This document shows, one piece after another, positions 27,170 through 30,027 of a stretch of DNA of 64,000 nucleotides. Made by a program: the position numbers and the translations under genes. Under the pieces are notes generated by a model, which saw only the letters and a program-made list of their open reading frames with translations, did no database searches and was not told where the DNA came from. Source of the DNA: Lelliottia sp. JS-SCA-14. Its GTDB lineage: Bacteria > Pseudomonadota > Gammaproteobacteria > Enterobacterales > Enterobacteriaceae. Each line of letters starts with the position of its first letter. The stretch's first letter is position 1. Where the stretch lies: the NCBI RefSeq assembly GCF_035593345.1, contig NZ_CP141606.1, forward strand, positions 2,604,001-2,668,000, in the 5' to 3' direction.

Positions 27170-29161
27170 ATGATTGACGAACTGGAGCATAATTTGCTGT
27201 TTCGTTACATGGGCACACACAGTCCCTGGTGGCGACTGACAGCGGACAGCAATGCTCTGCATCTGGCCGCCAGCGAAAACGCCGATACGACTCAGGTCGT
27301 TGCGTTGAGCGACGATCAGGCCGAACAGATTCGCCAGCTCACCGTCATCACTTCCAGCATTACCATGACGCTTTCCCTCTATGGCTCCGACGTTCCCGTG
27401 CATCTCGTGGGGCGCAAAATCAACAAAAAGGAGTGGGCCGGTACGGCCTCTGCCTGGAATGACACCCCTTCCGTGGCGCGCGATCTTGTGCAAGGTTTGT
27501 CCTTCGCCGAACAGGTCGTTTCTGAAGCCAACTCGGTGATTGTGATCCTTGATCAGCAGGGCAATATTCAGCGCTTTAACCGCCTGAGCGAAGAGTATAC
27601 CGGCATGAAAGAGCAGGAAGTCATCGGGCAAAACGTCTTTAAACTCTTTATGAGCCGCAGTGAAGCCGCTGCGTCGAAGCGTAATATTTCCGGCTTCTTC
27701 CGTAACGGCAGTTCCTACGAAGTGGAACGCTGGATCAAGACGCGGAAAGGACAACGATTGTTTCTGTTCAGAAACAAATTCGTCCACAGCGGCAGCGGGA
27801 AAAATGAAATTTTTCTTATCTGTTCCGGCACCGATATCACCGAAGAGCGCCGTGCCCAGGAACGTCTGCGCGTGCTGGCCAACACGGACACCATCACCGG
27901 ACTTCCCAACCGTAACGCCATCCATGAGCTGATCAGCGACGCAATAGACACGCGAGACGACGCTCAGGTCGGCGTGGTGTATCTCGATCTCGATAACTTT
28001 AAAAAAGTGAACGATGCCTACGGGCATATGTTTGGCGATCAGCTGTTGCAGGCGGTGGCGCTGGCGATTTTAAGCTGCCTCGAAGAGGGCCAGGTGCTGG
28101 CGCGTCTCGGCGGCGATGAATTTATCGTACTCGCGACCAACACCTCGCAAAGTACCCTTGAGGCGATGGCCTCGCGCATCCTGACGCGCCTGCGCCAGCC
28201 CTTCCGCATCGGTCTTATCGAAATCTATACCGGCTGTTCGCTGGGGATTTCCCTCGCGCCGCAGCACGGCACCGATCGGGAAAGTATTATTCGCAACGCC
28301 GATACGGCGATGTACACGGCCAAAGAGAGCGGACGCGGCAAGTTCTGCGTCTTCTCGCCAGAAATGAACCAACGCGTGTTCGAATATCTGTGGCTGGACA
28401 CCAACCTGCGCAAGGCGCTGGATAACGACCAGCTGTTGATTCACTATCAGCCGAAAATGACCTGGCGCGGCGAAGTGCGTAGCCTCGAGGCGCTGGTGCG
28501 CTGGCAGTCGCCGGAGCGCGGGCTGATTCCGCCGCTGGAGTTTATCTCCTACGCCGAAGAGTCGGGCCTGATTGTCCCGCTCGGGCGCTGGGTCATGCTC
28601 GACGTGGTGCGTCAGGTGGCGAAGTGGCGCGATAAAGGCATCAATCTGCGGGTGGCCGTGAACGTTTCTGCCCGTCAGCTCGCCGACCAGACCATTTTCA
28701 GCGACCTCAAACAGGCGCTGAAGGATCTCAATTTTGAATACTGCCCGATTGATGTGGAGCTGACCGAAAGCTGCCTGATTGAGAACGAGGAGCTGGCTCT
28801 GTCGGTGATTCAGCAGTTCAGCCAGCTAGGGGCGCAGATCCATCTCGATGACTTCGGTACCGGATATTCGTCCCTGTCGCAGCTGGCGCGTTTCCCGATT
28901 GATGCCATCAAACTCGATCAGGTGTTCGTGCGCGACATTCATAAGCAGTCGATTTCCCAGTCGCTGGTGCGCGCCATCGTGGCCGTGGCCCAGGCGCTGA
29001 ATTTACAGGTGATCGCCGAAGGGGTCGAGAGCGCGAAAGAAGACGCCTTTCTCACCAAGAATGGCGTCAACGAACGGCAAGGTTTTTTATTCGCGAAGCC
29101 AATGCCCGCTGCCGCATTCGAGCGCTGGCTCAAGCGTTACCAGGCAAAGAAAATGCGTTAA
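27170..29161 (+). CDS. pdeR: PAS-GGDEF-EAL receptor/phosphodiesterase RpfR (PdeR/Gmr)
   Basis: A 663-residue cyclic-di-GMP enzyme. Residues 1-85 match the RpfF-interaction region, ~110-225 a PAS domain (SEANSVIVILDQQGNIQRFN), ~235-400 a GGDEF domain with intact GGDEF at 314-318, and ~415-660 an EAL domain with EAL at 440-442 and DDFGTGYSS at 560-568. E. coli PdeR cleaves c-di-GMP and restrains curli expression through DgcM/MlrA. In Burkholderia and Cronobacter the orthologue RpfR binds the fatty-acid signal BDSF through its PAS domain. The convergent rpfF next door suggests this role here. Confidence 0.95.
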   Translation: MIDELEHNLLFRYMGTHSPWWRLTADSNALHLAASENADTTQVVALSDDQAEQIRQLTVITSSITMTLSLYGSDVPVHLVGRKINKKEWAGTASAWNDTPSVARDLVQGLSFAEQVVSEANSVIVILDQQGNIQRFNRLSEEYTGMKEQEVIGQNVFKLFMSRSEAAASKRNISGFFRNGSSYEVERWIKTRKGQRLFLFRNKFVHSGSGKNEIFLICSGTDITEERRAQERLRVLANTDTITGLPNRNAIHELISDAIDTRDDAQVGVVYLDLDNFKKVNDAYGHMFGDQLLQAVALAILSCLEEGQVLARLGGDEFIVLATNTSQSTLEAMASRILTRLRQPFRIGLIEIYTGCSLGISLAPQHGTDRESIIRNADTAMYTAKESGRGKFCVFSPEMNQRVFEYLWLDTNLRKALDNDQLLIHYQPKMTWRGEVRSLEALVRWQSPERGLIPPLEFISYAEESGLIVPLGRWVMLDVVRQVAKWRDKGINLRVAVNVSARQLADQTIFSDLKQALKDLNFEYCPIDVELTESCLIENEELALSVIQQFSQLGAQIHLDDFGTGYSSLSQLARFPIDAIKLDQVFVRDIHKQSISQSLVRAIVAVAQALNLQVIAEGVESAKEDAFLTKNGVNERQGFLFAKPMPAAAFERWLKRYQAKKMR

Positions 29162-30027
29162 CTGGCTTTACGCATCCCGACGGCGTTGTGACGATTTTGC
29201 AGCATTACCAGACGTTCCATATAGGCAATGTCCTTTGGCTCCAGGCAGAATGCCGCATCCACCCAGTCCTCGGTGATATCCATCAGCTCGCTGCGCGGGA
29301 GTTGCAACACCCGCTGACGGGCGCGGAGCATCGCCCGCACGCCGTTCAGCTTCGGCTGTAAGGTGTCGATGAAGGTGCGTGTGGCGACATATCCCAGGCC
29401 CGGCTCAAACAGCACATCCACCAGTCCGTACTGCTCGTGCCACTCCGCCGTGTGGGATTCCCCACGATAGATAAGCTCCTCGGCCAGCTTCATGCCTGCA
29501 CGACGGGCGACCAGCGAATATCCGCCCATGCCGGGAAACAGATTAAAAGCGATCTCCGGAAACCCCAACCGCGCGTCGCGCTGCGCCAGTACAAAATGGT
29601 GCGCCAGCGCCGCCTCAAAGCCGCCCCCGAGCGCGCTGCCCTCCACCATCGCCAGTGTAATGGCGCCGGTATCAAAGCCGCGTGACGCCGCGTGGACGCA
29701 ATCGACGCACGCCCGGGCGTAAGCGCGTAAGGCTTCGCGCCGTCCGTTCTGGATGCATTCGACGAAGAAGCGCAAGTCCCCTCCCGTGTTGTACATGTCG
29801 GGGACCAGTGAGCCGGTCACCCAGAAGTCCACGGCAAAGCCCGATTGCCGGACCAGCCACGACATGTTCATGATTTCCTCGATTAAGGCATGGTTGAAAC
29901 AGGGGCGCGGCTGAGCCCGCAGCATCATCCATACCGTACGCCTCTCTTCCTCGTAATAGCCTGCGAGCTGAGTGAAACGTTCAGGATCGGTGAACAGTTT
30001 GCAGGTTGCTTGGTTGATGACTGTCAT
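29158..30027 (-). CDS. rpfF: DSF-family signal synthase RpfF (crotonase fold)
   Basis: A 289-residue enoyl-CoA hydratase-family protein with the RpfF hallmarks: EGSALGGGFEAALAHH with Glu138, and GFPEIAFNLFPGMGGYS with Glu158. The two glutamates are 20 residues apart, like Glu141/Glu161 of Xanthomonas RpfF, which dehydrates 3-hydroxyacyl-ACP and releases a cis-2-unsaturated fatty acid signal. E. coli K-12 has no gene here. The stop shares the four bases TTAA with the stop of convergent rpfR. Start ATG 30027 with SD AGGAATTAG. Product chain length cannot be told from sequence. Confidence 0.92.
   Translation of the reverse strand: MTVINQATCKLFTDPERFTQLAGYYEEERRTVWMMLRAQPRPCFNHALIEEIMNMSWLVRQSGFAVDFWVTGSLVPDMYNTGGDLRFFVECIQNGRREALRAYARACVDCVHAASRGFDTGAITLAMVEGSALGGGFEAALAHHFVLAQRDARLGFPEIAFNLFPGMGGYSLVARRAGMKLAEELIYRGESHTAEWHEQYGLVDVLFEPGLGYVATRTFIDTLQPKLNGVRAMLRARQRVLQLPRSELMDITEDWVDAAFCLEPKDIAYMERLVMLQNRHNAVGMRKAS

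What the first reader, a model, noticed from the sequence alone, without database searches (positions are those of the whole stretch)
27170..30027. Convergent RpfR/RpfF pair: probable DSF-type fatty-acid quorum signalling in an enterobacterium
A protein with both RpfF catalytic glutamates (Glu138, Glu158, 20 apart) and the EGSALGGGFEAALAHH and FNLFPGMGGYS blocks lies tail to tail with a PAS-GGDEF-EAL protein whose first ~85 residues resemble the RpfF-binding region of RpfR. In Burkholderia cenocepacia and Cronobacter such pairs make and sense BDSF. E. coli K-12 has the receptor-like gene (pdeR) but no synthase here. This suggests the E. coli PdeR is an RpfR that lost its partner, and that this strain couples a fatty-acid signal to c-di-GMP.
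Basis: partly seen in the sequence, partly recalled or inferred. Interest (0 to 1): 0.75.

Follow-up and report, generated by a model that had tools for sequence, protein, structure and literature searches.

The report
Enterobacter fatty-acid signal synthase-receptor pair
This Enterobacter-like bacterium carries a known kind of two-gene kit that makes and senses a fatty-acid signal, and comparing it with relatives suggests that E. coli's matching receptor once had the same partner, lost it, and may since have gone partly deaf.

Summary
Window 27170-29161 (+) encodes an RpfR (FI-PAS-GGDEF-EAL), 29158-30027 (-) an RpfF. Both RpfF glutamates and all five BDSF-contact residues of the RpfR PAS pocket are present. 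RpfF falls in one fully supported clade with Burkholderiales RpfFs. Such pairs were already reported from Enterobacter, so this is a new member of a known kind. BDSF production is inferred, not measured.

The side remark that E. coli PdeR is an RpfR that lost its partner held up. Of 295 family genomes 70 have rpfF, all 70 with RpfR's FI domain; 32 have FI without rpfF. E. coli lies inside paired lineages on a catalytic-domain tree that needs 14 gains or losses, 5 of them on well-supported branches. Four orphan loci keep rpfF remnants; E. coli keeps none. In the matched clade the BDSF pocket is altered in 17 of 34 orphan and 0 of 41 paired receptors. Decay concentrates in FI, linker and PAS. 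K-12 has Leu for Arg187, predicting deafness to BDSF. Kinship-corrected tests are not significant.

The parts
27170..29161 (+). rpfR (E. coli name pdeR/yciR/gmr): BDSF receptor and c-di-GMP enzyme, 663 aa
   Evidence: ORF; PRK10060 1306 bits against cut-off 782; one search matches to 6dga, 6dgg
27170..27454 (+). FI domain (residues 1-95), predicted to bind and restrain RpfF
   Evidence: 120.6 bits to RpfR FI structure 6dga/6dgn over residues 1-95
27521..27841 (+). PAS domain (about residues 118-224) with BDSF contact residues Ser169, Asn172, Tyr183, Arg187, Asn202
   Evidence: 209 bits to 6dgg; residues read directly; contacts named in PMC6361424 (passages)
27878..28339 (+). GGDEF domain, GGDEF motif at residues 314-318
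   Evidence: Pfam PF00990 156.2 bits; motif
28403..29101 (+). EAL phosphodiesterase domain, EAL motif at residues 440-442
   Evidence: Pfam PF00563 228.8 bits; motif
29158..30027 (-). rpfF: DSF-family (probably BDSF) synthase, 289 aa, convergent with rpfR; stop codons overlap
   Evidence: ORF; about 412 bits to Burkholderia RpfF; clade
29614..29616 (-). codon of catalytic Glu138 of RpfF
   Evidence: E in 88 of 88 aligned RpfFs
29554..29556 (-). codon of catalytic Glu158 of RpfF
   Evidence: E in 88 of 88 aligned RpfFs
30221..30403 (+). yciZ, the neighbour that marks the far edge of the rpfF site. Where it was found, it starts 75-369 bases after pdeR's stop in orphans, and 1,053-1,164 (one 2,164) in paired relatives
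   Evidence: E. coli annotation pdeR-yciZ-yciT

Best explanation
This is a complete RpfF/RpfR signalling pair of the Burkholderia/Cronobacter type. RpfF dehydrates 3-hydroxyacyl-ACP and releases a free cis-2 fatty acid, probably BDSF (inferred from family). RpfR's N-terminal FI domain binds RpfF and restrains it. BDSF binds the PAS domain of RpfR, switches on the EAL phosphodiesterase and lowers c-di-GMP (inferred; shown in relatives). In Enterobacteriaceae the pair is old at this site, between rnb and yciZ, and was inherited with repeated loss of rpfF alone. Loss was followed by decay of the RpfF-binding domain and of the BDSF pocket while the catalytic domains stayed under constraint. E. coli PdeR is one such orphan.
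For: Sequence matches to solved structures; catalytic and pocket residues present and conserved in paired receptors (S169, N172, R187, N202 in 88 of 88, Y183 in 87 of 88); RpfF clade; RpfF and RpfR distances co-vary (Mantel r 0.914 over 88 pairs, 0.835 over 41 near ones, 0 of 999 permutations as high); no rpfF genome lacks FI (0 of 70) but 32 of 102 FI genomes lack rpfF; rpfF remnants in L012 (alignment score 78, best of 60 shuffles 33), L122 (92 against 30) and L153 (51 against 30), and in L127 (34 against 32, but both ends including the start region align); in-clade decay: at columns fixed in 47 outside paired receptors, deviations are FI 52/738 (7.05%) paired and 136/607 (22.4%) orphan, FI-PAS linker 0.38% and 6.11%, PAS 0.29% and 3.41%, GGDEF 1.37% and 2.19%, EAL 2.05% and 3.13%. 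DgcM (70%) and MlrA (77%), partners of E. coli PdeR, are encoded in this genome.
Against: No signal or binding was measured. In Cronobacter the wild type did not induce the signal biosensor; only the strain with plasmid-borne rpfF did (PMC4698668). NCBI's own RpfF model scores this protein 175.7 bits, under its cut-off of 550. Corrected for kinship the decay test rests on 5 well-supported independent pairs, none of them contrary: sign-test p 0.25-0.5 for the pocket and 0.25-1 for the FI columns. Overall branch-length excess in the matched clade is modest: FI 1.41 (60 column bootstraps 1.08-1.80), PAS 1.34 (0.98-2.03). Half of the orphans keep the whole pocket, and 38 of 42 orphan loci show no remnant above shuffles.
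Confidence: 0.88

Rival explanations
1. rpfF was gained several times by horizontal transfer next to pre-existing pdeR genes; E. coli's orphan state is ancestral and PdeR never had a partner.
For: Change counts on a tree cannot by themselves tell gain from loss; E. coli shows no rpfF remnant. A second, displaced rpfF in G264 (L160, 78% identity) shows that the gene can move or duplicate.
Against: Rooted on Burkholderiales, 47 of the 48 sampled receptors outside the 75-row clade are paired (sampling was not random); RpfF and RpfR distances co-vary; in most Enterobacteriaceae and Erwiniaceae loci rpfF ends within about 45 bases of rpfR's end (exceptions L032, L072, L161-L165, L172); four orphan loci retain rpfF remnants there.
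Confidence: 0.06
2. RpfF here is mainly an acyl-ACP thioesterase or fatty-acid housekeeping enzyme restrained by RpfR, and the free cis-2 acid is a by-product, not a quorum signal.
For: Waldron et al. [quoted passage not shown] 0 of 70 rpfF genomes lack FI, as expected if an unrestrained synthase is costly.
Against: The BDSF contact residues of the PAS pocket are fixed in 88 paired receptors (Y183 in 87) but four of the five vary in orphans, which ties the pocket's upkeep to the presence of the synthase.
Confidence: 0.07
3. The decay in orphans is not caused by loss of rpfF but by shared fast-evolving lineages (E. coli, Citrobacter and relatives).
For: 15 of the 35 orphans form one clade; the kinship-corrected sign test is not significant.
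Against: Pocket columns need at least 11 changes in the matched clade (172: 5, 169: 3, 183: 2, 187: 1) with 0 of 41 paired rows altered, spread over separate orphan lineages; GGDEF and EAL are raised only 1.5- to 1.6-fold.
Confidence: 0.15

Closest known systems
RpfF/RpfR of Cronobacter turicensis LMG 23827 (PMC4698668; PMC6361424)
   Same: Pair of BDSF-type synthase and FI-PAS-GGDEF-EAL receptor; convergent genes; its FI and PAS crystal structures match the window protein
   Different: Different genus; the window pair has no experimental data
RpfFBc/RpfR of Burkholderia cenocepacia
   Same: RpfF about 412 bits over residues 6-280; pocket residues equivalent to S168, N171, R186, N201
   Different: RpfF 63-67% identical to the five Burkholderia replicon copies found by tblastn; the flanking genes searched for (fabI, rnb, yciT, yciH, pyrF) were not found beside the Burkholderiales loci within the DNA held
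E. coli PdeR (YciR, Gmr)
   Same: Same position after rnb and before yciZ, full-length relative with FI, PAS, GGDEF, EAL
   Different: No RpfF; FI 46 of 95 and PAS 86 of 107 identical but EAL 217 of 233; Arg187 is Leu, Asp26 Ser, Ala29 Val, Gly72 Glu in K-12
Xanthomonas RpfF with RpfC/RpfG
   Same: RpfF family; 3m6m 154.5 bits
   Different: Receptor is a hybrid sensor kinase with an HD-GYP regulator (PMC4698668); RpfC/RpfG were not searched for here

Membership tests
RpfF (DSF-family synthase) | Two catalytic glutamates 20 residues apart in a crotonase core | tested here: met
   E138, E158; 88 of 88 aligned RpfFs; that these are the catalytic pair is from the finding and recall
RpfF (DSF-family synthase) | Falls in the RpfF clade, not among ordinary crotonases | tested here: met
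   15-row clade 100/100; the own genome's other crotonases (five loci, four distinct rows, only 29-43% of columns aligned) fall outside
RpfF (DSF-family synthase) | NCBIfam NF053515 RpfF equivalog cut-off | tested here: not met
   175.7 bits against 550; the broader PRK08788 model is met, 410 against 177. That the RpfF model reflects Xanthomonas-type proteins is my inference
RpfF (DSF-family synthase) | Makes a cis-2 unsaturated fatty acid | not testable with these tools
   Needs LC-MS or bioassay
RpfR (BDSF receptor) | FI-PAS-GGDEF-EAL order | tested here: met
RpfR (BDSF receptor) | BDSF contact residues S169, N172, Y183, R187, N202 | tested here: met
   all five present; roles from PMC6361424
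RpfR (BDSF receptor) | Adjacent convergent rpfF | tested here: met
RpfR (BDSF receptor) | Binds BDSF and changes c-di-GMP turnover; FI binds RpfF | not testable with these tools
   Needs purified proteins or mutants
E. coli PdeR trigger enzyme circuit | Partners DgcM and MlrA present in the genome | tested here: met
   DgcM 70% and MlrA 77% identical best hits; interaction itself not tested

The most novel reading that the evidence does not exclude
Enterobacteriaceae hold a natural series of quorum-sensing receptors that lost their synthase: first rpfF is deleted with the receptor left able to eavesdrop (as in two Enterobacter-like genomes, L012 and L122, with pocket and FI columns 26, 27, 29 and 72 intact and a remnant of rpfF still present), then FI and the BDSF pocket decay, ending in 'deaf' PdeRs such as E. 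coli K-12 (R187L) that work only as c-di-GMP trigger enzymes. If so, the listing of E. coli as having the DSF receptor RpfR would be wrong in function, and the FI columns that are invariant in paired receptors but lost in orphans (D26, S27, A29, G72) mark residues kept for binding RpfF.
Probability: 0.5. Interest if true: 0.6.

Novelty: new member of a known kind. Interest (0 to 1): 0.4.

Why it matters
The pair itself extends a known signal system to one more Enterobacter-like genome. The comparison adds a test of what the well-studied E. coli regulator PdeR used to be: a fatty-acid receptor with a partner enzyme. It gives a direct prediction (K-12 PdeR does not answer to BDSF) and a set of genomes caught at different stages after losing the signal gene.

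Tried and rejected
Rejected: chance resemblance or ordinary enoyl-CoA hydratase; rpfF overlooked in E. coli (no blastn match; two Escherichia records among 16 plasmid records with a tblastn match at E up to 1e-20; the one opened, L182, has 29% identity and falls outside the RpfF-like group); E. coli YmiD as a relic of rpfF (it sits in the site, but the site scores 22 against a shuffle maximum of 32); RNA families (none at gathering score in 22000-34500); promoter and terminator scan (1 and 3 found, no more than in shuffles).

Led nowhere: structure prediction (not available), so the four FI columns could not be placed on a model. From the strand order in PMC6361424 I would put Gly72 in the beta4-beta5 loop reported as buried in the RpfF interface, and 26-29 in the beta1-beta2 turn, which is not one of the two loops named there; this is my reading, not a computation. 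These four columns were picked, so '30 of 35 orphans altered, 0 of 88 paired' is not an unbiased figure; the domain-level comparison is fairer. FI includes column 14, which differs in all 41 paired and 31 orphan rows. An earlier control took 21 Erwiniaceae-like paired rows against 67 other paired rows (FI 0.3%, PAS 0.0%, GGDEF 0.84%, EAL 1.14%; orphans against 88 paired: 16.4%, 2.7%, 1.2%, 0.5%). The whole-tree rate excess over the catalytic domains (FI 2.51, PAS 2.28) shrank to 1.41 and 1.34 over EAL in the matched clade. Four pocket columns against random sets of four fixed PAS columns: 165 of 10,000 sets reached them.

From the family sample I fetched all 32 orphan genomes but only 27 of the 69 other paired ones, so proportions in the tree sets mean nothing. 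193 of 295 family genomes had no FI match and were not classed. Of 141 loci with an rpfR match, 9 were left out as fragments or with a stop in the matched stretch and 9 as identical copies, leaving 123 (88 paired, 35 orphan). The tree is a quick one (41 of 120 inner branches starred, 40 open). The scar scan used 42 orphan loci, duplicates included. L019/L140 (one locus) is weak: 29 against 32 and 31. In one search, 14 of 88 paired RpfFs and 19 of the RpfF-like hits were used. One search had no positive control inside it; with the same query is the nearest one.

Literature limits: nine searches listed no title or abstract start about rpfF loss or FI/pocket decay in orphans; most of the listed papers were seen as listings only. 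Deng et al. 2012, Lindenberg et al. 2013 and the DOI that I recalled for Mhatre et al. 2020 were asked for and are not held; Mhatre et al. may discuss RpfR without RpfF (recalled, unsure).

Full report
What is there. The two ORFs are at the stated coordinates, convergent, with overlapping stop codons. The 663-aa protein has EAL, GGDEF and PAS by Pfam and its first 95 residues match the crystallised RpfR FI domain (6dga/6dgn, 120.6 bits); residues 115-224 match the RpfR PAS structure 6dgg at 209 bits. The 289-aa protein matches Burkholderia RpfF (6dgn, 5fus) at about 412 bits over residues 6-280, two further RpfF-type entries at 166.7 and 154.5 (7zq7, 3m6m), and the next solved crotonase at 54.8. 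Glu138 and Glu158 of RpfF, and Ser169, Asn172, Tyr183, Arg187, Asn202 of the BDSF pocket of RpfR, are present. NCBI's RpfF model is not reached (175.7 against 550 bits), so I expect automated annotation to name the gene only as a crotonase.

Where it is. The window genome is 5.0 Mb. Over 10.3 kb its nearest named relative among the loci is Enterobacter soli (82% DNA identity); a genome of the same genus group (G239) is 94.5% identical to Enterobacter vonholyi over 9.1 kb. I infer genus Enterobacter. The order fabI, yciW, rnb, rpfR, rpfF, yciZ, yciT, yciH, pyrF (gene names by recall and by order) is the annotated E. coli order with rpfF added; osmB was not looked for.

What is known. The held papers say that homologs of both genes occur in Enterobacter (PMC4698668, passages and section 4 read), that E. 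coli and Enterobacter cloacae have RpfR and that FI restrains RpfF (PMC6361424, passages and sections 9, 11, 14, 18 read), and that RpfF homologs also occur in Pantoea, Rahnella and Erwinia (PMC12838280, passages). In C. turicensis, rpfR and rpfF mutants have 3.9- and 3.4-fold raised c-di-GMP. E. coli YciR (PdeR) inhibits the cyclase YdaM (DgcM) by direct contact (PMC9684580, passages) and interacts with MlrA (PMC10333796, passages). So the pair is a new member of a known kind.

How it likely works. RpfF makes a cis-2 fatty acid; FI binds RpfF and limits it; the signal binds PAS and favours c-di-GMP breakdown. All of this is inferred from relatives; the sequence shows only that the residues and domains checked are present and conserved. 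DgcM and MlrA are also encoded, so the signal could feed the CsgD switch; this link is speculation.

Distribution. In 295 genomes of the family, 70 have rpfF (E up to 1e-40) and 102 have FI (E up to 1e-6). All 70 are among the 102. The 32 orphans include a genome of the window's own genus group (G239) and members of two other genus groups that also contain paired genomes (G081 in g82, G268 in g73). Some orphan FI regions are themselves broken (G028, which is only 49% complete, G042, G045). 13 named orphan genomes were searched whole: 0 of 13 had rpfF. No rpfF match was found in the 5,426 E. coli genomes.

Loss, not absence. On a quick tree of the catalytic domains of 123 receptors the paired/orphan label needs 14 changes, 5 of them forced by well-supported branches. 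Rooted on Burkholderiales, E. coli, Citrobacter and other orphans form a clade of 15 rows (SH-aLRT 98) inside paired lineages. At the former rpfF site, remnants of the rpfF 3' end survive in L012 (E. cloacae DSM 26481), L122 and L153, and both ends, including the start region, in L127. The other 38 of 42 orphan loci scanned, E. coli included, show none above shuffles.

Decay after loss. Pocket residues are fixed in paired receptors (88 of 88 at four positions, 87 of 88 at Tyr183), whereas in 35 orphans Asn172 is changed in 9, Ser169 in 5, Tyr183 in 2, Arg187 in 2 and Asn202 in none. GGDEF is intact in all 123 and EAL in all but one paired row (ESL). In the matched clade 0 of 41 paired and 17 of 34 orphan receptors have an altered pocket. 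Taking columns fixed in 47 paired receptors outside that clade, orphans deviate more than in-clade paired ones 3.2-fold in FI, 16-fold in the FI-PAS linker, about 12-fold in PAS, and 1.5- to 1.6-fold in GGDEF and EAL. In B. cenocepacia, alanine at the equivalents of 169, 172, 187 and 202 raised c-di-GMP. S169A occurs naturally in 5 orphans, and K-12 has R187L. Against this: only 5 independent well-supported pairs exist, none contrary but p 0.25-0.5 for the pocket and 0.25-1 for FI, and the branch-length excess over EAL is modest (FI 1.41, 1.08-1.80; PAS 1.34, 0.98-2.03).

Verdict. Observation confirmed, interpretation supported, pair ordinary for its kind. The stages of receptor decay after synthase loss are the part worth following.

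Noticed in passing
L160 (G264:C7:1001864-1010727), ORF 4001-4870 +: A second RpfF, 78% identical to the window's, about 280 kb from that genome's own rpfR/rpfF pair, beside LuxR-like regulator ORFs and a LacI/PTS pair, with no rpfR in the 8.9 kb held; functional labels of neighbours are my reading.
   Followed up: partly
L161 4993-11259 and L162 4993-6681: Genes inserted between rpfR and rpfF: what looks like a chaperone-usher fimbrial operon in L161 and a kinase-like ORF (perhaps WaaY-like) in L162; names are my reading, not searched.
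   Followed up: no
L182 4983-5816 (E. coli plasmid NZ_CP060058.1): Crotonase with 29% identity to RpfF following ABC transporter, FtsX-like permease and lipoprotein-sorting genes; tree places it outside the RpfF-like group.
   Followed up: partly
L195 3648-3776 + and L183 7797-7925 -: E. coli small protein YmiD (42 aa) occupies the site where relatives have rpfF; the same ORF with changes is in L150; the site shows no similarity to rpfF above shuffles.
   Followed up: partly
L127 (G028): RpfR itself is broken into several matched pieces and rpfF is reduced to its two ends, so the whole pair seems to be decaying in this genome, which is only 49% complete.
   Followed up: partly
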